64,000 nt of DNA from Prauserella shujinwangii. Lineage in GTDB: Bacteria; Actinomycetota; Actinomycetes; Mycobacteriales; Pseudonocardiaceae. Below the pieces are notes generated by a model. It searched no databases. It worked only from the letters and a program-made list of their open reading frames with translations, and was not told the DNA's origin. How positions within the stretch are numbered: the first letter of the stretch is position 1; every line of letters starts with the position of its first letter. The stretch covers positions 62,001-126,000 of the forward strand of contig NZ_PVNH01000011.1 in the NCBI RefSeq assembly GCF_003001955.1, in the 5' to 3' direction. Below, piece by piece: positions 2,224 to 10,750 of this stretch. Position numbers and translations under genes: made by a program.

Positions 2224-2574
2224 ATGGAAATCGTCTACGACGTACTGGTGGTCCTGCACCTGCTCGGCATGGCGGGCATCCTCAGCGGTGTCCTGATCCA
2301 CTACACGGCGAAGGCCGCCGCGGCGTTCGCGGCCATGCTGCACAGCGCGATCCTGCAGGTGATCACCGGGCTGGCGCTCACCGGCATCGCCTCGGCCGGC
2401 CTGGTGGACTCGGACGTGAACAACACCAAGATCGCGGTGAAGCTCGTGGTCGCCGTCGCCGTGCTGGTGCTCGCGCTCGTGCTCTACCGCAGGCGGGATC
2501 TCGCGGACCGGGGCCTCGTCGCCGCGGTCGGTGGGCTCACCGTGGTCAACGTGATCATCGCGGTGTTCTGGTAG
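2224..2574 (+). CDS. Small four-helix integral membrane protein, function unknown
   Basis: This 116-residue, very hydrophobic protein has about four membrane segments: near residues 5-25, 30-58, 66-86 and 95-115. The only charged stretch is the loop 'LYRRRDLADRG', likely cytoplasmic. I do not recognise a named family. It starts 9 bases after a BlaI-like operator and has no ribosome site, so it may be read from a leaderless transcript. Its 3' end overlaps that of the opposing gene by 20 bases. The shared operator links it to the repressor-peptidase pair upstream and to the two membrane genes at 2555-3323. Confidence 0.75.
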   Translation: MEIVYDVLVVLHLLGMAGILSGVLIHYTAKAAAAFAAMLHSAILQVITGLALTGIASAGLVDSDVNNTKIAVKLVVAVAVLVLALVLYRRRDLADRGLVAAVGGLTVVNVIIAVFW

Positions 2575-2974
2575 GCGCGGTGCGGCGCAGCCAGAGCAGT
2601 CCCACCACGGGAAGCACGAGCGGGATGAAGAGGTAGCCGCGTCCGAAGTCGGACCACACCGTCTCGTCGGGGAACGCCGCGGCGTCCGCGATGCTCAGCA
2701 CCCCGACCGTCAGCACGCCGGCCAGCTCCACCGAGCAGGCGGCGAGCGCCACCCGCCACCAGGTCACGCCGGAGCGGGCCAGCGCGATGGTCGCGAGCAC
2801 GTAGACGACCGCGGCGAACGCCGACAGCGCGTAGGGCAGCGGCGCCTCGTCGAACCTGGTGGCGATCTGGACGCCCGCGCGGGAGGTCGCGGCGACCGCG
2901 AAGATCGCGTAGACGGCCACGAGCACGCGGCCGGGCCCGCTGGCCGTGGCGGGAACGTCAGGCACCGGCTCCAC
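2555..2974 (-). CDS. Integral membrane protein, function unknown
   Basis: The product is 139 residues with a short proline/alanine-rich N-terminus and about four membrane helices. Motifs include 'AVYAIFAVAATSRAGVQ', 'FDEAPLPYALSAFAAVVYVLAT' and 'SDFGRGYLFIPLVLPVVGL'. I cannot assign a function. The GTG start at 2974 lies inside the end of the preceding gene (17-base overlap), so the pair forms a two-gene operon on the minus strand. Transcription probably starts at the BlaI-operator promoter near 3350. Confidence 0.75.
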   Translation of the reverse strand: MEPVPDVPATASGPGRVLVAVYAIFAVAATSRAGVQIATRFDEAPLPYALSAFAAVVYVLATIALARSGVTWWRVALAACSVELAGVLTVGVLSIADAAAFPDETVWSDFGRGYLFIPLVLPVVGLLWLRRTAPTRTPR

Positions 2975-3323
2975 CCCAGACCTCGTACAGGCGCAGCACC
3001 AGCACGGAGACGGTGACGCACGCGACGCCGAGCACCGCGGTCGCCGACCGGCTGCGCTCGGCCAGCGCCCACACGGTACCGAGCGGCAGTACCACGAGTG
3101 AGCCCGCCAGGTACCCGATGAAGGTCGGCATGCTGCCCGGCCGCTCCCCCGCGATGAGGAGCACGGCCGCGAGCACCGCCTGCGCGATCAGCAGGACCTC
3201 CACCGCGGCCAGCCCGGCCAGCAGGGCCCGCTGCGGGGGCCGGTTCCGGGCGACGAGCACGAAGCTCCACACCGCGACGGCGAGCGCGGACAGCGCCACC
3301 GCGACGGCGAACTCAGAGATCAC
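2958..3323 (-). CDS. Integral membrane protein, function unknown
   Basis: This 121-residue protein has about four hydrophobic segments ('AVAVALSALAVAVWSFVLVA', then a helix in the middle, and 'VLGVACVTVSVLVLRLY' near the end). The GTG start at 3323 is preceded by a strong GGGAGGAA ribosome site. It is the first gene of a two-gene unit with 2555-2974. Sixteen bases upstream of the start lies a BlaI-like operator that also covers a TATGCT -10 box, so repression by the BlaI protein encoded at 955-1308 is likely. Confidence 0.75.
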   Translation of the reverse strand: MISEFAVAVALSALAVAVWSFVLVARNRPPQRALLAGLAAVEVLLIAQAVLAAVLLIAGERPGSMPTFIGYLAGSLVVLPLGTVWALAERSRSATAVLGVACVTVSVLVLRLYEVWGGAGA

Positions 3324-3339
3324 GGTTCCTCCCGTCGGC

Positions 3340-3358
3340 CTACTACCTCGTGTAGCAT
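3340..3358. promoter_or_regulatory. Second BlaI-type operator, overlapping the -10 box of the 3323 operon
   Basis: CTACTAC and GTAGCAT arms are separated by 5 bases, the same half-site and spacer as the operator at 2196-2214 with two mismatches in the outer bases. Read on the minus strand, TATGCT lies inside it at -10 distance from the start region of the 3323 gene. Confidence 0.6.
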
Positions 3359-3360
3359 AG

Positions 3361-3744
3361 TGGCCTCACTCGACAGCTCACGTGCGGCCCGCTGGTCCTT
3401 TGTGGATCGGGATCGGGTGCTACCTGCTCCGTCCCATGGGGACAACTCGAATTGGCCCCTCTTTCGAGCAGTTTCTGTGACCCTCTGCTCACCCGTGGCG
3501 ACCAGCGAATTCGTTTTCCGGCCACCCGTGTTACACCGGCAACCGGGTGAAGCGAGGCCCGAGCGGGTTACGCAACGCTTGGATACCGGTTGGTAACCGT
3601 AATAGTCACGTCCCTGTTCAGCGGAGTCGAACCCCCTTGATGGCGGATTGGCCATGGCGGGTCCCGTGTGGGGGAATATTCCCGGGAGTCGTGGAAAGCA
3701 GCCGACCGGCGAGCTCTGTTCCGCTGGTCAGGAAAGGGATTTCG
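3361..3744 (+). promoter_or_regulatory. 384-bp control region of the lanthipeptide operon
   Basis: No convincing gene is present; short open frames here have poor third-position GC. The stretch is more AT-rich than its surroundings. It contains a perfect 12-bp palindrome GGGAATATTCCC at 3672-3683 and a weaker CGGTT-ggt-AACCG repeat at 3587-3599, either of which could be an operator. GGAAAGGGA at 3731-3739 is the ribosome site for the synthetase gene. No adjacent LuxR-type (RamR/AmfR-like) activator gene is seen. Confidence 0.5.
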
Positions 3745-6354
3745 ATGGACCTCCGGTACGAGGCATATTGCTTCGCCGATCCGCTTTTCTTCGACGAGCA
3801 GAGGGAAACGCGCACCCCGGAAGAGGACTTCTCCACGCTCCTCCCGCTGCCCGGGACCGGTTGGGTCCAGAAGGATCTCGGAGTGTGGCGGATGCTCGCG
3901 CCGGACGCGGTGGCGCTGCCGGGTCAGGGCTGGAAGATCCATGTGTCCTCTGGTCTGGACAACGCTGAGCGAATCCTTTCGCGAGTATACGAGTACTGCG
4001 TTCACAATGCGGTCGCGTTCAAGCACCTGCGGACGAAGTCAATCTTGCTCGCGCGCAATTCGAAATACGCGTCCCGCGCGGCAAGTGGAAAATTGATCAC
4101 GATATACCCCGCCGACGACGACCGATTTGCTTCGATACTCGAAGAGCTTTCCGGGAAACTCGATGGAGAGCCCGGTCCGTACATTCTCAGCGATCTTCGT
4201 TACGGTTCTGGCCCCCTTTACGCACGGTATGGAGCATTCGTCGAGCAGTGGATGGAGCACGGCGGTTCCCGGGTGCTCGCCGTCACGAAACCGGACGGCA
4301 CCAAGGCGCCCGACCGGAGGGAGCCCACGTTCTCGGTGCCGGAGTGGGTCACGCTTCCCGCGTGCCTCGAGCCACACCTGGCCGCCCGCCGGAGCGGTGA
4401 TCCGGCCCAGTTTCCCTACCGGGTGCGCGGCTCACTGCACTTCTCCAACGGCGGAGGGGTGTACCGCGCGGAGCGGCTCTCCGACGGTAAGGAGCTCGTG
4501 CTCAAGGAGGCCAGGCCGCACGCGGGACTCGACCGGGGCGGGGTCGACGCCGTCGAGCGGCTGCGCCGGGAGCACCGGGTGCTCACCCGCCTCGCCGGGA
4601 TCGACGGGGTGCCCGAGGTGTACGACCTGTTCGTGGTCTGGGAGCACCACTTCCTCGCCATGCAGGACGTGCCAGGGGTGCCGCTGGGCTCCTGGCTCGC
4701 CCGGAACTACCCGCTGACCAGGCGCGATGTGGGCGATGACCACGTCGCCGCGTACACCGAGCGGGCGCTCGCGCTGCTCGGCTCCGTCGAGCGGCTGCTG
4801 GCCGAGATCCACGAGCGCGGCATCGTCTTCGGCGACCTGCACCCGCTCAACATCATCGTCGAATCGGACGACGGTGCAGGCGGCGAGAACGGCGGCGACA
4901 CCGTGCGCCTGATCGACTTCGAGCTCGCGTTCGACGTGACCGAGCCGGGCAGGCCCGCCCTCGGCGCGCCGGGCTTCCGCGCCCCCGCCGACCGGAAGGG
5001 CTTCGCCATCGACGAGCACGCCCTCGCCGCCCTCAAGCTCTGGCTATTCCTGCCGCTCAACGCCCTGCTCGAACTCGCGCCCGCGCGCCTGCCCGGGCTG
5101 GTCGAGTTCATCGAGCGCAGGTTCCCGCTGCCGTCCGGCTTCGGCGACGGCATCGTGCGCACACTCGCGCCCGCGGCGCCGGTCACACCCGCGCCGAACG
5201 AACTGGACGCGGCGGAGCCCGACTGGGGCGCCGTGCGCAAGGCCATCGCCGAGGCCATCCTCGCGAGCGCCACGCCCGAGCGGACCGACCGGCTCTTTCC
5301 CGGGGACATCGAGCAGTTCCGCGTCGGCGGGGCCGGCTTCGCCTACGGTGCGGCCGGGGTGCTGCACGCGCTGCACGTCGGCGGCGCGGGCCGCTACCCG
5401 GAGCACGAGCGCTGGCTGCTGGACTCCGTGCGGCGCGACCCGCCCGCCAGGCCCGGCCTCCTCGACGGCGCGCACGGCATCGCGCACGTACTGGAGAACT
5501 TCGGTTACCGCGACGAGGCGAGCGAACTCGTGTCCGGCGCGGCGAACCTCGTGGAGCAGACCGGCGACCATGGTTTCGAGAGCGGGCTGGCCGGTATCGG
5601 GCTGAACCTGCTGCACCTCGCGGAATCGCGGGGTGACGCCGGGTTCCGCGCCGAGGCGGAACGGATCGGCGACCGCCTCGCCACCACGCTGGAGTCGGCG
5701 GACGGCCCCGCCGACCACGCGCGTGCCGGGCTCACCCACGGCTGGTCCGGACCCGCCCTGCTGTTCGTGCGGCTGTTCGAGCGCACGGGCGACCGCGGCT
5801 GGCTGGCACTCGCCTGCCGGGCGCTGGAGCGGGACCTCGCCGAATGCGTGCCGGCCGACGACGGGTCGCTGCAGGTCCGTGACGCGGGCACCCGCACGCT
5901 GCCCTACGTGGGAGTGGGCAGCGCGGGTGTCGCGCTGGTGGCGGGTGAACTGGCCGAAGTGGACCCGGATTCCGCTGTGGCGCACCGGATTCCCGACCTG
6001 TTGCAGGCATGCCGCGGCGAGTTCGTCGTCCACCCCGGACTGTTGCTCGGCCGGTGCGGCCTGCTGGTCACGCTCGCGGCCGCGCATCGGCGGCGACCGG
6101 ACGCCGATGTCGCCTCGGTGGTGGACATGCACCTGTCCCGGCTGCGGCTGCACGCGGTTCCGTTCGGTCCCGGCGGCCTCGCCTTCCCCGGCAACCAGTT
6201 GTTGCGGCTCTCGATGGACGTGGCCACCGGTGGTGCCGGTGTGCTGCTCGCGCTCGCGGCCGTGCAGGACGGTCACGGCGAAGCGCTGCCGTTCCTCGGC
6301 GGACCGCGGCGCCCCCAAGGACTTCCGGCCGATCCCCGACCGGAAGGCAAGTGA
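3745..6354 (+). CDS. Class III lanthipeptide synthetase (LanKC; RamC/AmfT type)
   Basis: The enzyme of 869 residues should phosphorylate Ser/Thr of the precursor, eliminate phosphate and cyclise Cys onto the dehydro residues in the cytoplasm. The N-terminal ~220 residues ('LRYEAYCFADPLFFDE...') correspond to the lyase domain. A Ser/Thr kinase domain follows: 'ELVLKEARP' (lysine near residue 255), 'FGDLHPLNIIV' (catalytic loop near 365) and 'LIDFELAFD'. The final ~330 residues form a LanC-like barrel with 'GLLDGAHGIAHVL', 'GFESGLAGIGLNLL' and 'GLTHGWSGPALL'. The Cys-Cys-His zinc ligands of class I, II and IV cyclases are not seen ('GRCGLL' replaces the CHG motif), which defines class III. ATG 3745 is chosen for its ribosome site. 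The N-terminal coding part is lower in GC than the rest. Confidence 0.93.
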   Translation: MDLRYEAYCFADPLFFDEQRETRTPEEDFSTLLPLPGTGWVQKDLGVWRMLAPDAVALPGQGWKIHVSSGLDNAERILSRVYEYCVHNAVAFKHLRTKSILLARNSKYASRAASGKLITIYPADDDRFASILEELSGKLDGEPGPYILSDLRYGSGPLYARYGAFVEQWMEHGGSRVLAVTKPDGTKAPDRREPTFSVPEWVTLPACLEPHLAARRSGDPAQFPYRVRGSLHFSNGGGVYRAERLSDGKELVLKEARPHAGLDRGGVDAVERLRREHRVLTRLAGIDGVPEVYDLFVVWEHHFLAMQDVPGVPLGSWLARNYPLTRRDVGDDHVAAYTERALALLGSVERLLAEIHERGIVFGDLHPLNIIVESDDGAGGENGGDTVRLIDFELAFDVTEPGRPALGAPGFRAPADRKGFAIDEHALAALKLWLFLPLNALLELAPARLPGLVEFIERRFPLPSGFGDGIVRTLAPAAPVTPAPNELDAAEPDWGAVRKAIAEAILASATPERTDRLFPGDIEQFRVGGAGFAYGAAGVLHALHVGGAGRYPEHERWLLDSVRRDPPARPGLLDGAHGIAHVLENFGYRDEASELVSGAANLVEQTGDHGFESGLAGIGLNLLHLAESRGDAGFRAEAERIGDRLATTLESADGPADHARAGLTHGWSGPALLFVRLFERTGDRGWLALACRALERDLAECVPADDGSLQVRDAGTRTLPYVGVGSAGVALVAGELAEVDPDSAVAHRIPDLLQACRGEFVVHPGLLLGRCGLLVTLAAAHRRRPDADVASVVDMHLSRLRLHAVPFGPGGLAFPGNQLLRLSMDVATGGAGVLLALAAVQDGHGEALPFLGGPRRPQGLPADPRPEGK

Positions 6355-6375
6355 GGAACGAGGAAAGGAAGCACG

Positions 6376-6516
6376 ATGGATCTGGTTCTCGACCTGCAGG
6401 CGATGGAGAACGCCGAGGCTCCCGAGTACGGCGGCGGCAGCAGCGGTGGCGCCAGCAACCTCAGCCTGATCGCCTCCTGCGCCAACAGCACCGTCAGCCT
6501 GCTCACCTGCCACTGA
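6376..6516 (+). CDS. SapB/AmfS-like class III lanthipeptide precursor
   Basis: This 46-residue peptide follows the synthetase by 21 bases, with a strong GAGGAAAGGAAG ribosome site. The leader begins 'MDLVLDLQAMEN' and contains the LxLQ-type recognition motif of class III leaders. A Gly/Ser-rich linker leads to the core 'SNLSLIASC-AN-STVSLLTCH'. The second block is exactly SxxSxxxC, as in SapB and AmfS, giving a labionin or lanthionine ring. The first block is SxxSxxxxC, one residue longer than the usual spacing, with an extra Ser before the Cys. By analogy the product could be a surface-active morphogenetic peptide aiding aerial growth; no activity can be read from sequence. Confidence 0.9.
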   Translation: MDLVLDLQAMENAEAPEYGGGSSGGASNLSLIASCANSTVSLLTCH

Positions 6517-6528
6517 CGGCAGGCGCGG

Positions 6529-6567
6529 GTGCGGGAGCGGCGCAGGAGAGGTGCGCCGCTCCCGCAC
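6529..6567 (+). terminator. Strong hairpin between precursor and exporter genes (attenuator or partial terminator)
   Basis: A perfect 15-bp GC-rich stem (6529-6543 with 6553-6567) encloses a 9-base loop and starts 12 bases after the precursor stop. There is no T-run. Such a structure would protect the short precursor message and lower read-through into the transporter genes, giving more precursor than exporter. Confidence 0.75.
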
Positions 6568-6683
6568 CACCCCATTCTGCCCGACCGAGCCAGGTGGAGT
6601 CGTGCGTGAAAAGCCTTCGAGCGCAGCGGCACGCGGTGCCTCCGCGGGAACCGAAGGCCGGGCGAAGGGTGGGCCCGAACACC

Positions 6684-8369
6684 GTGAACGCACCCGACCG
6701 GCTCCTGCTCGACACCGTCCGGCACAGCGGCTACCGCGTCGTGCTGCTGATGCTCGCCGCCGCCGTCGCCGCGGCCGCCGGCCTGCTCCTGCCGGACGCG
6801 CTCGCCGGCGCGGTCGACGCCACGGTCTCCGGGGAGCGCAGCTGGCCGCAGGTCCTCTGGCTGCTTGCGGTGGGCGGGGCCGAGATCGCCGCCGACGTGG
6901 CGGCGGCCATGCTCACCGCGCGGGTCACCGCGGCCGACACCGCCTGGCTGCGGCGCCGCCTGACCCGGCACCTGGCCCGGCTCGGCACCGCGTCGCCCTA
7001 CCCCGACGGCGACGCGGTGAGCAGGCTGACCACCGACTGCACCGGAGCGGGCACGGTCGCGTCGACCCTCGTCCAGCTCGGTTCCGCCGTCGTGGTGTCC
7101 ACCGGCGCGGTCACGCTGCTGGCCGTCCTCGACTGGCGGCTCGCCGTCGTGTTCTTGGTCAGCGTCCCGCTCGCGCTCCGGCTCGCCCGCTCCCACCTGC
7201 GGCTCACCGCCGACGACCTCACCGCCTACCAACGGGTGTCCGGCGAACTGTCCGCGCGGCTGCTCGACGCGGTCTCCGGACTGCGCACCATCGCGGCCGC
7301 CGGGCTCGGCGAGCGTGAGTCCGCCCGGGTGCTGCGGCCGCTGCCCCAGCTCAGCGCGGCGGGTGCGGGGATGTGGCATACCCAGGCCCGCATGGTGTGG
7401 AAGGCGGGGCTGCTCCTGCCCGCCGTCGAGCTGGCCGTCCTCGGGGCGGCGGGCTTCGGTGTGCTCGCGGGCAGGCTCAGCGTCGGCGACGTGCTCGCCG
7501 CGCTCGGTTACGTGGCGCTCGGCATGAGCCTGGTCGGGCAGGTGCCGCAGCTGACCAACCTGTCCCGCGCCCGGTCGTGCGCGGGCAGGCTCGTGGAGGT
7601 GCTGGACACCGCTCCGCCGGAGGAGGGCACGTTCCGGCTTCCCGCCGGGCCGGGCACCGTCGAACTGCGCGGGGTGCGTGTCGGCGAGGTGCTCCGGGAC
7701 GTGGACCTGACCGTGCCGGGCGGCAGCACGGTGGCGGTCGTCGGCCGCTCCGGCTCCGGCAAGTCCGCGCTCACCGCCGTGCTCGGCGGCCTGCGCCGTC
7801 CGGACAGCGGGGAGGTGCTGCTCGACGGCGTGCCCGTCGAGCGGACGCGCACCGAGGAGCTGCGGACCGCCGTCGGGTACGCCTTCGAGCGGCCGGTCCT
7901 GCTCGGCGCGACGGTCGCCGACGCCGTCGCCTACGGCAGCTGGGCCGGTTCGGCCGCCGTCGAACGCGCGTGCCGCACCGCGCAGGTGCACGATCTCGTC
8001 GTCCGCCTGCCCGAGGGGTACGCGAACCCGCTCGGGCACACACCGCTGTCGGGCGGGGAGGCGCAGCGCGTCGGCCTGGCCCGCGCGGTCGTGCGGAATC
8101 CCCGGCTGCTGGTGCTCGACGACGCCACGGCGAGCCTCGACACGGTCACCGAGGCCAGGGTCGAACGCGCGATCGGGGAGGCGCTGCCCGGCCGCACCCG
8201 GGTGGTGGTCACCCACCGTGCGGGCACCGCGAGCCGGGCCGACCGGGTGATCTGGCTGGCCGACGGCCGGGTGCGCGGCGTCGCGCCGCACGACGTGCTG
8301 TGGGCCGAGCCGGACTACCGGGCGGTGTTCACGGAGAGCGCCGAGGGCACGGAGGGCACCGACCCGTGA
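6684..8369 (+). CDS. ABC exporter, fused membrane and ATPase domains (first of pair; RamA/RamB type)
   Basis: The half-transporter of 561 residues has six membrane segments in the first ~300 residues and then an ATPase with Walker A 'GRSGSGKSALTAVLG', signature 'LSGGEAQRVGLARA' and Walker B 'LLVLDDATASLD'. An H-loop follows in 'VVVTHRAG'. It probably pairs with the next gene as a heterodimer that exports the lanthipeptide. GTG 6684 is taken because 'DRLLLDTVRHSGYR' is the usual N-terminus of these exporters. GTG 6606, with a better spaced GGTGGAG site, would add 26 residues of poor codon usage. Its stop overlaps the next start (GTGA). Confidence 0.88.
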   Translation: MNAPDRLLLDTVRHSGYRVVLLMLAAAVAAAAGLLLPDALAGAVDATVSGERSWPQVLWLLAVGGAEIAADVAAAMLTARVTAADTAWLRRRLTRHLARLGTASPYPDGDAVSRLTTDCTGAGTVASTLVQLGSAVVVSTGAVTLLAVLDWRLAVVFLVSVPLALRLARSHLRLTADDLTAYQRVSGELSARLLDAVSGLRTIAAAGLGERESARVLRPLPQLSAAGAGMWHTQARMVWKAGLLLPAVELAVLGAAGFGVLAGRLSVGDVLAALGYVALGMSLVGQVPQLTNLSRARSCAGRLVEVLDTAPPEEGTFRLPAGPGTVELRGVRVGEVLRDVDLTVPGGSTVAVVGRSGSGKSALTAVLGGLRRPDSGEVLLDGVPVERTRTEELRTAVGYAFERPVLLGATVADAVAYGSWAGSAAVERACRTAQVHDLVVRLPEGYANPLGHTPLSGGEAQRVGLARAVVRNPRLLVLDDATASLDTVTEARVERAIGEALPGRTRVVVTHRAGTASRADRVIWLADGRVRGVAPHDVLWAEPDYRAVFTESAEGTEGTDP

Positions 8370-10102
8370 GGCTCTACTGGACGACGCTCGCCGCGCAGTG
8401 GCGCGGCGCCCTGGTACTGGCCGGCTGCTCCGTGCTGGAGAGCGTTCCCGCGTTCCTGTCCGGCAGGCTCGTCGAACGATCGGTCAACGCGGGGTTCGCG
8501 GCGGGCAGGCCGTGGCCGGGGGTCGCGTGGCTGCTCGTGTTCGCCGCCGTCTCGGTGCTCGGCGCGTTCGGATCGCGGCTGGTGTGGCAGCGGCTGGGCG
8601 AGATCATCGAACCACTGCGCGACGCGCTCGTCCGCGCCATCGTCCGGGGGGTCCTCGGCGGCAGCGCACCGCAGCGCAGCCGCCCCGACGCCAGCGGCGT
8701 CGCCCGGATCACCCAGCACGTCGAGGTGGTGCGGGACGCCACGGCCGGGCTCCTGGTGCAGGCGCGCGGCATGGTGGTGACCACGGTGGCGGCGCTGGCC
8801 GGGTTGTTCTCCGTCGCCGTGGAGCTGGCGTGGCTGGTGGCCATTCCGGTCCTGCTCTCGCTGGCGGTGTTCGCCTGCCTGTTGCCGACCCTGGCGAGCA
8901 GGCAGCGGGCCCTCACCCTCGCCGACGAGCACACCGCCGAGGCGGCGGGCACGGTGCTCACCGGCATGCGGGACGTGGTGGCGTGCGGTGCGGAGGCCGC
9001 GGCGGTCGCCTCGGTGTTCGGCGAGATCGGGAAGCAGGAGACCGCGGCCGTGCGGATGGGCACCGCCACCGCCGCCAGGACACTGGTGATCGCCGTCGGC
9101 GGCTTCGTCCCGCTGCTGCTAGTGCTCGCGCTCGCACCGGGCATGGTGGCGTCCGGTCAGTTGACGGCCGGTGCGGCGCTCGGTGCGGTGGTCTACCTCT
9201 CCGCCACGCTGCGGCCCGCGCTGCAGGGGCTGGCCGCCACGACGAGCACCGTGGTGCTCCGCCTGCTGGTGGCACTGCGCAGGCTGAGCGAGTCCTGCCC
9301 GGTTCCGGAGGCGGAGGACGGGACGGCGGAGCCCCGCGACGGCACGGTGGGCGTGCGCGGGGTGACCTTCGGCTGGGGCGAGCACGCGGAGCCGATCGTG
9401 CGTGACCTCGACCTGGAGCTGGAGCCGGGCGACCACCTGGCGATCGTGGGGCCGAGCGGCATCGGCAAGTCGACGTTCGCCGGCCTGCTCACCGGGATGC
9501 TCCGGCCGCAGCGGGGGCAGGTGCTGCTCGGCGGCGAACCGGTCACCGAGATCCGTCCCGCCCTGCGGCACCGGCTCGTCGCGTTCACCCCGCAGGAGTC
9601 CTACGTCTTCGCCGGAACCGTGCGGGAGAACCTGGCGCTGCTCGCACCGTCCGCCACCGACGCGCGGCTCCTCGCCGCGGCCGAGCGGGTGGGCGCGGCC
9701 GCGCTGGTCGACCGGCTCGGCGGGCTCTACGGCGAGCTGGGGCACGCGGCCGAGGGCCTTTCGGCGGGTGAGGCGCAGCTGCTGTCGCTCGCCCGGCTCT
9801 ACGCGAGCCCGGCGGAGGTGATCGTGCTCGACGAGGCCAGCTCACACCTCGACCCCGCGGCGGAGGCACGGGCGGAGTGGGCCTTCGCCGAGCGTGGCGG
9901 GGTGCTCGTGGTGATCGCCCACCGGCTCAGCTCGGCGGTGCGGGCCAACCGGGTACTCGTCATGGACGGCCGGGAGACGCTGCTCGGCAGCCACGACGAG
10001 CTGCTGTCCTCCGCGCCCGCGTACGCTGAGCTGATGCGGGCGTGGACCGTCCCGGTCAGTCCGCGCGCAGCGCTGCCAGCGACTCGCGCAGCCGCCCGGT
10101 GA
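8366..10102 (+). CDS. ABC exporter, fused membrane and ATPase domains (second of pair)
   Basis: This half-transporter of 578 residues starts with GTG overlapping the stop of its partner. An N-terminal six-helix region precedes an ATPase with Walker A 'GPSGIGKSTFAGLL'. The signature motif is the variant 'LSAGEAQLLSLARL' (A in place of the second conserved G), and the Walker B is 'VIVLDEASSHLDP'. The two partners have different signature sequences, as in asymmetric heterodimers. It is the last gene of the lanthipeptide operon and runs 47 bases into the end of the convergent thioesterase gene, with no terminator visible between them. No leader peptidase or dedicated regulator gene follows, so leader removal must be done by another protease. 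Confidence 0.88.
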   Translation: MRLYWTTLAAQWRGALVLAGCSVLESVPAFLSGRLVERSVNAGFAAGRPWPGVAWLLVFAAVSVLGAFGSRLVWQRLGEIIEPLRDALVRAIVRGVLGGSAPQRSRPDASGVARITQHVEVVRDATAGLLVQARGMVVTTVAALAGLFSVAVELAWLVAIPVLLSLAVFACLLPTLASRQRALTLADEHTAEAAGTVLTGMRDVVACGAEAAAVASVFGEIGKQETAAVRMGTATAARTLVIAVGGFVPLLLVLALAPGMVASGQLTAGAALGAVVYLSATLRPALQGLAATTSTVVLRLLVALRRLSESCPVPEAEDGTAEPRDGTVGVRGVTFGWGEHAEPIVRDLDLELEPGDHLAIVGPSGIGKSTFAGLLTGMLRPQRGQVLLGGEPVTEIRPALRHRLVAFTPQESYVFAGTVRENLALLAPSATDARLLAAAERVGAAALVDRLGGLYGELGHAAEGLSAGEAQLLSLARLYASPAEVIVLDEASSHLDPAAEARAEWAFAERGGVLVVIAHRLSSAVRANRVLVMDGRETLLGSHDELLSSAPAYAELMRAWTVPVSPRAALPATRAAAR

Positions 10103-10487
10103 CCTCCACCGGACGCCGCGTCTTCCGGTCGACGAAGACGTGCACGAAGTGTCCCTCCGCGATCAGTTCGGAGCGGTCCTCCCGGTGGATGCCGATCTCG
10201 TAGCGCACGCTCGACCGGCCGAGGTGGCCGACCCGCAGGCCCACGGCGAGACGCTCGGGGAACGCCACCGAGGCGTGGTAGTTGCAGTGCGACTCGACGC
10301 AGAGACCGATGACCTCGCCCTCGTGGATGTCCAGGCCGCCGTGCTCGATCAGCCAGCCGTTGATGACGGTGTCCATCAGGGCGTAGTGCACGACGTTGTT
10401 GACGTGTCCGTAGAGGTCGTTGTCCTTCCACCTGGTGGGGACCAGTTCCCAGTGCGCGTAGCTCACCGGGACGAATGTAGTGGTCAC
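10056..10487 (-). CDS. Hot-dog fold acyl-CoA thioesterase (4HBT family)
   Basis: This 143-residue protein has the 4-hydroxybenzoyl-CoA thioesterase pattern: 'PTRWKDNDLYGHVNNV' holds the catalytic Asp-containing loop, followed by 'YALMDTVINGWLIE' and 'VRYEIGIHREDRSELIAEG'. The family hydrolyses acyl-CoA thioesters in the cytoplasm; the acyl group cannot be predicted. GTG 10487 matches the usual family start; open frame continues upstream to 10601 but with poorer codon character. Its end overlaps the convergent exporter gene by 47 bases, and it is divergent from the desaturase. Confidence 0.85.
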   Translation of the reverse strand: MTTTFVPVSYAHWELVPTRWKDNDLYGHVNNVVHYALMDTVINGWLIEHGGLDIHEGEVIGLCVESHCNYHASVAFPERLAVGLRVGHLGRSSVRYEIGIHREDRSELIAEGHFVHVFVDRKTRRPVEVTGRLRESLAALRAD

Positions 10488-10750
10488 GTCCGGCGCATGG
10501 CGCCCCGGCGTGGCATCGGGTACGGTCGGAGATGTAGGTGATCGCGCGGCACGGCCGCCCAGGTGAGATCGGAGTGACCCCCGGCGGGGCCCGAGTGGCA
10601 CGCTCGATGAACATTCTTGTTTAGGCCGGTGGGGTCCGGCCGAATCGGTTGAAAAGAGATTCCACTTTCTTTCGTTCGGTGTCTCCCGTCGTCGAATCGG
10701 CGGGCGGATTGTTGCGCCGTGTCACGAAGTAGAGAGAGCACGAGGTGTCT

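What the first reader, a model, noticed from the sequence alone, without database searches (positions are those of the whole stretch)
3745..10102. Complete class III lanthipeptide operon with an unannotated 46-codon SapB-like precursor
A LanKC synthetase is followed within 21 bases by a short ORF with an LxLQ-type leader and a core ending in a canonical SxxSxxxC block, then by two exporter half-transporters. The first core block is SxxSxxxxC, one residue longer than in SapB/AmfS, with an extra Ser beside Cys 35, so the N-terminal ring could differ in size. No RamR/AmfR-like activator or leader protease is present. This is the best candidate for a new product in the window.
Basis: partly seen in the sequence, partly recalled or inferred. 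Interest (0 to 1): 0.75.

Follow-up and report, generated by a model that had tools for sequence, protein, structure and literature searches.

The report
Erythreapeptin-type lanthipeptide operon with conserved hairpin
The operon is real but ordinary: it should make a close relative of the known peptide erythreapeptin, and the supposedly odd ring spacing is common in this bacterial family; the less expected part is a strongly conserved hairpin right after the peptide gene.

Summary
In detail: a class III lanthipeptide synthetase (3745-6354), 21 bases, a 46-codon precursor (6376-6516), then two ABC half-exporters (6606-8369, 8366-10102). The reading as a new product with an unusual ring is not supported. 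The core SNLSLIASCANSTVSLLTCH differs by one residue from a core found exactly in 13 of 131 family precursor places read out, one of them in a genome that I take, from its contig length and recall, to be Saccharopolyspora erythraea, the erythreapeptin producer. The SxxSx4C first block occurs in 85 of the 131 and lies inside the published motif SxxSx(2-5)C. Lack of a leader protease in the cluster is usual. So: a new member of a known kind. The same inner-stem pattern follows 91 of 131 family precursors, 11 of 17 pairs change on both sides, a covariance model finds one strong site in its own genome, and it reaches no Rfam cut-off. Best guess: an internal attenuator or mRNA 3'-end stabiliser that keeps precursor message above exporter message; inferred, not shown.

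The parts
3745..6354 (+). LanKC, class III lanthionine synthetase (lyase, kinase, cyclase domains), 869 aa
   Evidence: NF038151 1023 bits, RamC_N E 7.7e-76; aligns over residues 32-844 with solved class III synthetase 8sao; lyase Lys107/Lys116, kinase Asp364/Asn369 and DFE391-393 each conserved in 77-80 of 80 aligned LanKC, window included
6360..6371 (+). purine-rich ribosome-binding site of the precursor gene (read by eye)
   Evidence: sequence shows directly
6376..6516 (+). precursor peptide gene (LanA/RamS type), 46 aa
   Evidence: PF19402 E 1e-16, NF033212 E 1.8e-15; the only NF033212 match at E <= 0.001 in the genome
6454..6513 (+). conserved core SNLSLIASCANSTVSLLTCH (residues 27-46): block 1 SxxSx4C (6454-6480), block 2 SxxSx3C (6487-6510)
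   Evidence: core conserved across the family
6528..6568 (+). intercistronic hairpin, 17-bp perfect stem, 7-nt loop, no T run after it
   Evidence: fold z -3.76; longest perfect stem in the 64-kb window; covariation; 62.6 bits in the own genome, next independent site 22.9 bits
6606..8369 (+). ABC half-exporter 1 (GTG start proposed)
   Evidence: PF00664 + PF00005 (scanned from 6603); tblastn match in 69 of 80 loci
8366..10102 (+). ABC half-exporter 2 (GTG start overlapping the stop of exporter 1)
   Evidence: PF00664 + PF00005; tblastn match in 70 of 80 loci (in one of these, L098, it lies upstream of LanKC)

Best explanation
A chromosomal class III lanthipeptide operon of the erythreapeptin type. 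LanKC binds the MDLVLDLQ leader, phosphorylates and eliminates Ser residues of the core, and closes two labionin or lanthionine ring systems, S27/S30/C35 and S38/S41/C45. The product is exported by the two ABC half-transporters acting together, and the leader is trimmed stepwise by a peptidase encoded elsewhere in the genome. The product is most likely a hydrophobic extracellular peptide of SapB/AmfS kind, acting in aerial growth rather than as a strong antibiotic. The hairpin after the precursor gene most likely works as an internal attenuator or 3'-end stabiliser, so that precursor message exceeds exporter message. Shown here: gene content, family membership, conservation of core, gene order and hairpin. 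Inferred: ring chemistry, export, protease, biological role, hairpin function.
For: Family models over cut-off for LanKC and precursor. Catalytic residues conserved in 77-80 of 80 LanKC; the positions of the zinc ligands are Gly, Leu, Leu here, not Cys, Cys, His, as expected for the metal-independent class III cyclase of PMC10604976 (passages; alignment). Of 80 named relatives 79 were examined for a precursor and 74 gave one; exporters matched in 69 and 70 of 80; the short precursor itself matched by tblastn at 1e-8 in 27 of 80. Core one residue from the 13-copy core. Core position 11 is N, A, Q or H in L132, L176, L202 and L180, the same four letters that BGCFlow reports for eryS (PMC11162802, section 27). 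Four M1 and two S9_N matches elsewhere in the genome; AplP-like M1 proteases encoded outside the clusters are reported for this class (PMC10885120, passages). Hairpin.
Against: No expression or product data. That G013 is S. erythraea rests on its 8,212,805-base contig and my recall of that chromosome's length. The erythreapeptin core was in no text I could search (none; two unrelated papers). The residues that PMC10604976 proposes for Cys activation (Phe770, Asp771 of ThurKC) are Leu, Leu here by sequence alignment, with my own three-residue offset between chain and paper numbering; that paper warns that sequence alignment is unreliable there. For the hairpin, wobble cells do not favour RNA (23 G-U against 34 A-C), the window's own loop GGAGAGG occurs in 1 of 54 copies, and the bare 7-bp inner stem is not specific: pattern matches in 191 of 297 family genomes, two in the own genome, fewer than the reversed control pattern there (10).
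Confidence: 0.85

Rival explanations
1. One reading: a new product with an N-terminal ring of unusual size, because of the SxxSx4C block and the extra Ser beside Cys35.
For: The spacing and the extra Ser are really there.
Against: SxxSx4C is the first block of 85 of 131 family precursor places and 58 of 72 named ones with a readable block; Ser beside Cys is part of the 13-copy core and of 26 of 37 SNLSL-type cores; the published motif is SxxSx(2-5)C.
Confidence: 0.05
2. The hairpin is a DNA element: a palindromic operator for a regulator of the exporter genes rather than an RNA structure.
For: Inner stem hardly varies: 12 invariant columns of 45, although 8 of the 12 are forced by the pattern with which I picked the copies; G-U is not favoured over A-C (23 against 34); no T run follows.
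Against: The outer stem varies while pairing is kept: in the ten outer pairs, which the pattern does not force, 8 have changes on both sides, 88 of the 115 such cells; an operator would not need that. The loop is asymmetric and fairly conserved (GGCCAAG 21, GGCGAAG 18 of 54). Precursor genes outside the family have other hairpins at the same place (22 of 30).
Confidence: 0.25
3. The hairpin is only a generic actinobacterial terminator-like stem with no special role here.
For: Weak model hits in 17 of 393 other genomes of the class, all 17 without a readable precursor within about 1.5 kb, most of them GC-rich hairpins with the same GAGCGGC-like arm; precursor genes outside the family carry other stems at the same place; the bare inner-stem pattern is common.
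Against: The full model has one strong site in its own genome (150 of 13922 candidates scored), and the inner-stem pattern is at the same place in 91 of 131 family loci (94 of 131 by the model, counted).
Confidence: 0.3
4. The cluster is silent or decaying.
For: Two Amycolatopsis relatives (L079, L097) keep a LanKC with changed catalytic residues, and no precursor, exporters or hairpin were found there, so loss happens.
Against: Here every open frame is intact, the catalytic residues are kept, and between this core and that of Qaidamihabitans albus one codon differs silently and one by Ile/Leu.
Confidence: 0.07

Closest known systems
Erythreapeptin (class III, Saccharopolyspora erythraea)
   Same: Core SNLSLxASCANSTVSLLTCH, block spacing x4 then x3 (L132); same letters at core position 11 among relatives as reported for eryS
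   Different: Ile instead of Leu at core position 6; different leader tail.
SapB / RamS and AmfS (Streptomyces)
   Same: Same Pfam and NCBIfam families, two-block core; order synthetase, precursor, two transporters as in ramCSAB and amfTSAB (named in PMC13380574, passages; gene order partly recall)
   Different: First block x4 here; x3 in cores of the SRASLLLC kind, which I recall as SapB's; no LuxR-type activator beside the operon
ThurKC and other solved class III synthetases (8sao, 9ugq)
   Same: Three-domain LanKC with DFE motif and without zinc ligands (in 9ugq the DFE stretch reads differently)
   Different: Only distantly alike in sequence; Phe770/Asp771 positions of ThurKC are Leu/Leu here
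Internal terminators after substrate-binding-protein genes in clostridial ABC importer operons (PMC9045158, abstract and passages)
   Same: Stem-loop between a first, abundant small product's gene and transporter genes; some of the loops there (type IV) hardly have a U tract
   Different: Other phylum, importers not exporters; there termination was measured, here nothing was

Membership tests
Class III lanthipeptide biosynthesis (LanKC) | LanKC with lyase, kinase and zinc-free cyclase domains | tested here: met
   NF038151 1023 bits over cut-off 575, LanL 362 under 650; catalytic residues and missing zinc ligands by alignment
Class III lanthipeptide biosynthesis (LanKC) | precursor with LxLQ-type leader motif and SxxSx(2-5)C core | tested here: met
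   LVLDLQ; SxxSx4C and SxxSx3C
Class III lanthipeptide biosynthesis (LanKC) | labionin or lanthionine rings in the product | not testable with these tools
   needs mass spectrometry or NMR
SapB/AmfS family | match over curated cut-off of NF033212 and PF19402 | tested here: met
   56.8 bits over 25; 61.6 over 24.3
SapB/AmfS family | adjacent LuxR-type activator (RamR/AmfR), as in ram and amf | tested here: not met
   no GerE match in the window, nearest on the contig about 26.5 kb upstream; a feature of the streptomycete loci rather than of the peptide family
SapB/AmfS family | restores or promotes aerial growth | not testable with these tools
   needs a bioassay
Erythreapeptin type | core SNLSLLASCANSTVSLLTCH or near it | tested here: met
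   19 of 20 residues identical to the 13-copy core; naming of the reference genome from contig length and recall
Rfam families | hairpin reaches the gathering score of a known RNA family | tested here: not met
   window 6300-6700: highest score 24.4 bits against 52.5 needed, none of 23 listed matches reaches its gathering score; 0 gathering hits in 9 related loci
Rho-independent terminator | GC stem followed by a run of T | tested here: not met
   followed by ACCCCATTCT; not called by the terminator scan

The most novel reading that the evidence does not exclude
The hairpin is an undescribed cis-acting element dedicated to SapB/AmfS-family operons: a sequence-conserved, covarying stem after the precursor gene in Pseudonocardiaceae (with other hairpins at the same place in other Actinomycetes) that sets the ratio of lanthipeptide precursor to exporter by attenuation, processing or binding of a specific factor.
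Probability: 0.35. Interest if true: 0.45.

Novelty: new member of a known kind. Interest (0 to 1): 0.28.

Why it matters
For the peptide: it adds one more natural variant (Leu to Ile) of a core that is almost fixed across several genera, which suggests strong selection and a shared role outside Streptomyces. For the hairpin: if it tunes precursor against exporter, it is a transferable control element for lanthipeptide expression and a simple test of how one-promoter peptide operons keep precursor in excess.

Tried and rejected
Looked for the erythreapeptin core as text in papers: none for SNLSLLASC, two unrelated papers for SNLSLL. Rfam on the hairpin: only matches under the gathering score. 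Sigma-70 promoter scan: no site in 3300-10250; three terminator-like sites near 7134, against 1.8 expected, none at the hairpin. Literature on a hairpin after lanA: of the lists shown (20 of 60 papers; 12 of 519; 15 of 26; 0; 12 of 1,266), no title or abstract start concerned such an element in class III operons; the lists are capped and the library lacks most subscription papers, so this does not show that it is unpublished. In PMC8079986 (passages) SapB is only a table entry. I recall stem-loops after lanA in other lantibiotic operons (recall, no call).

Model R1 in the class (stricter filters): 18 of 394 genomes with a hit at E <= 0.01; among the 19 loci read only the own genome's lies beside a readable precursor. 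Bare inner-stem pattern: 191 of 297 family genomes, not specific by itself; the own genome's second site was not in the part of the list shown. Upstream membrane genes 2555-3323 and the thioesterase at 10056-10601 matched in 27 and 23 of 80 loci, but are kept in L079 and L097, where no precursor or exporters were found, so I left them out of the operon.

Rows dropped or limits before counts: L098 left out of the LanKC tree and precursor reading; L069 left out of the stem count (cut by contig end). The 131 family places are the 131 best-scoring places (31 loci given, 100 fetched), the window's own included; weaker and unlisted ones are missing, several genomes give two places, and in L175, L200 and L208 the profile match runs over a stop. 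Block spacing was read by script with Ser or Thr allowed and the shortest spacing taken. The 54 hairpin copies of alignment A1 were picked by an inner-stem pattern, which biases the seven inner pairs.

Full report
Observation. Searches confirm the coordinates in the finding: LanKC 3745-6354, 21 bases, precursor 6376-6516, then two half-transporters ending at 10102. The precursor is MDLVLDLQAMENAEAPEYGGGSSGGASNLSLIASCANSTVSLLTCH. Pfam and NCBIfam place synthetase and precursor over their curated cut-offs, and each is the only over-cut-off match of its NCBIfam model in the 6.1-Mb genome. The window lies in a genome grouped in one genus with G001, whose contig 1 has the same 639028 bases as the named record of Qaidamihabitans albus, family Pseudonocardiaceae.

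Is the spacing unusual? A search of 297 genomes of the family found precursor matches in 142. I read out the 131 best-scoring places, the window's own included. 85 of 131 have the blocks x4 then x3, as here; 17 have x3, x3; 15 have x3, x3, x3; 11 a single x3 block; 3 begin with x2. 37 of 131 have an SNLSL-type core; 13 are exactly SNLSLLASCANSTVSLLTCH, and the window's differs by Ile at core position 6. A named set gives the same picture: 80 loci by LanKC similarity, 79 examined, 74 with a precursor, 72 with a readable block, 58 of them x4, 6 x3 and 8 x2. On a FastTree tree of 80 LanKC the window sits with Q. albus and Prauserella muralis (support 99), inside a starred set of 37 rows, 29 of them x4. 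The literature states the motif as SxxSx(2-5)C (PMC11251773, passages).

Which known peptide? Its contig is 8,212,805 bases, which I recall as the S. erythraea NRRL 2338 chromosome. BGCFlow (PMC11162802, section 27 read) reports that core position 11 of eryS is N, A, or Q/H in different Saccharopolyspora phylogroups; counting from S27, relatives have N (L132), A (L176), H (L180, whose contig has the 2392754-base length of named S. spinosa L047) and Q (L202) there. The two lines agree, but the reference name is partly recall.

Machinery. Solved class III synthetases align with LanKC. Lyase lysines 107 and 116, kinase Asp364 and Asn369, and DFE 391-393 are each kept in 77 to 80 of 80 aligned sequences; 8 of the 11 departures are in L079 and L097. 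The three zinc-ligand positions are Gly, Leu, Leu, in keeping with the metal-independent cyclase of PMC10604976 (passages), though two residues that paper proposes for catalysis, Phe and Asp, are Leu and Leu here by sequence alignment. No M1 or S9_N peptidase is in the window; four M1 and two S9_N matches are elsewhere in the genome. That fits AplP-like proteases encoded outside the clusters (PMC10885120, passages) and the statement that actinobacterial class III clusters usually lack a protease (PMC7268733, passages). No GerE match lies in the window.

Role. SapB and AmfS act in aerial growth, and a 2026 paper reports that a variant of durhapeptin, of the same NCBI family, induced aerial hyphae in several Streptomyces but not in its own producer (PMC13380574, abstract and passages).

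The hairpin. Between the precursor stop and exporter 1, 6528-6568 forms a perfect 17-bp stem with a 7-nt loop; the stretch 6514-6606 folds at -55.8 kcal/mol, z -3.76, 0 of 200 shuffles as good. It is the longest of 11 perfect stems of 10 bp or more in the window. 69 of 73 named relatives, and the window, have a perfect stem of 10 bp or more within 90 nt of the precursor stop (the misses are L072, L106, L109, L111), and 70 of 75 stretches, window included, have the same inner-stem pattern. In 54 distinct copies 93.4% of cells pair, 11 of 17 pairs have changes on both sides, 115 cells against a shuffled mean of 41.0 (sd 4.9, 0 of 500), and sliding the partner lowers all measures; the weakest measure, further pair types, is 23 against 19.9 (25 of 500 shuffles as high). 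These copies were chosen by an inner-stem pattern, which biases the inner seven pairs; in the ten outer pairs 8 have changes on both sides, 88 of the 115 cells. A covariance model finds it at 62.6 bits in the own genome, with the next independent site at 22.9 bits (150 of 13922 first-look candidates scored). In the 131 family places, 91 have the inner-stem pattern within 150 nt of the stop: 79 of 85 of the x4,x3 type, 10 of 17 x3,x3, 2 of 2 x2,x3, and 0 of 27 others; the model finds 94 of 131 at E <= 0.01 (79 of 88, 15 of 43, counted from the lists). A perfect stem of 9 bp or more of any sequence is there in 114 of 131 (sum's table). Among the misses L005 and L027 have a changed but still paired version. 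Outside the family 22 of the 30 best-scoring precursor places have a perfect stem of 9 bp or more within 120 nt, of other sequence, against 1 of 30 in the following 120 nt. So a hairpin after the precursor gene is widespread in this peptide family, and its sequence differs between clades.

Against specificity: the bare inner stem with free centre (GAGCGGC, 13 free bases, GCCGCTC) is found in 191 of 297 family genomes and twice in the own genome, fewer times than the reversed control pattern in the own genome, which has 10. It is the full stem with its centre, at this place, that is conserved.

What the hairpin does. It lacks the T run of a standard intrinsic terminator. The order precursor, stem, transporter resembles clostridial importer operons in which stem-loops, some hardly with a U tract, terminate partly and affect the stability of the upstream message (PMC9045158, abstract and passages). 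I therefore favour partial termination or 3'-end protection. Against an RNA-only reading, A-C cells (34) outnumber G-U cells (23), so wobble does not pick a strand; 16 of the A-C cells are at one pair, all in Amycolatopsis records, and may be one event.

Verdict. A real and intact class III operon of a well-known type; its product is probably a one-residue variant of erythreapeptin. The hairpin is the only part that I did not find described in the searches made, and those do not cover most subscription journals.

Noticed in passing
window 6528-6568: Conserved covarying hairpin between precursor and exporter genes; no Rfam match at gathering score.
   Followed up: yes
L079:6001-8538 and L097:6001-8553 (Amycolatopsis): LanKC kept at the same chromosomal site but with changes at lyase Lys116 (Glu in both), kinase Asp364 (Glu, Gly) and the DFE motif, and no precursor, exporters or hairpin found: decayed or put to another use.
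   Followed up: partly
L110 (between 8601 and 8870) and L111 (between 8598 and 8871) (Kutzneria): Cys-rich precursor-like ORF MENVLALQGI[EK]SAPGCCGDPCD[HN]GCGHGCDHIW[VI]SVILGGGVCL after a LanKC; no SxxSxnC block, so ring chemistry is unclear.
   Followed up: no
L101, frame starting at 8505 (Kibdelosporangium philippinense): Possible leader-like MNLILSLQGLEVETSDD with an unusual Ser/Tyr-rich tail after a LanKC.
   Followed up: no
L053, L059, L065, L067, L069, L096 (Amycolatopsis): A clade of six with His-rich leader ends and a short x2 first block, nested within x4 relatives on the LanKC tree.
   Followed up: partly
window 2555-2974 and 2958-3323, minus strand: Two small genes without Pfam match, apparently membrane proteins, found near LanKC in 27 of 80 related loci.
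   Followed up: partly
L072, 90 nt after 8700 (Prauserella muralis): Close relative with nearly the same core but a different sequence, also strongly folding (-58.5 kcal/mol), after the precursor gene.
   Followed up: no
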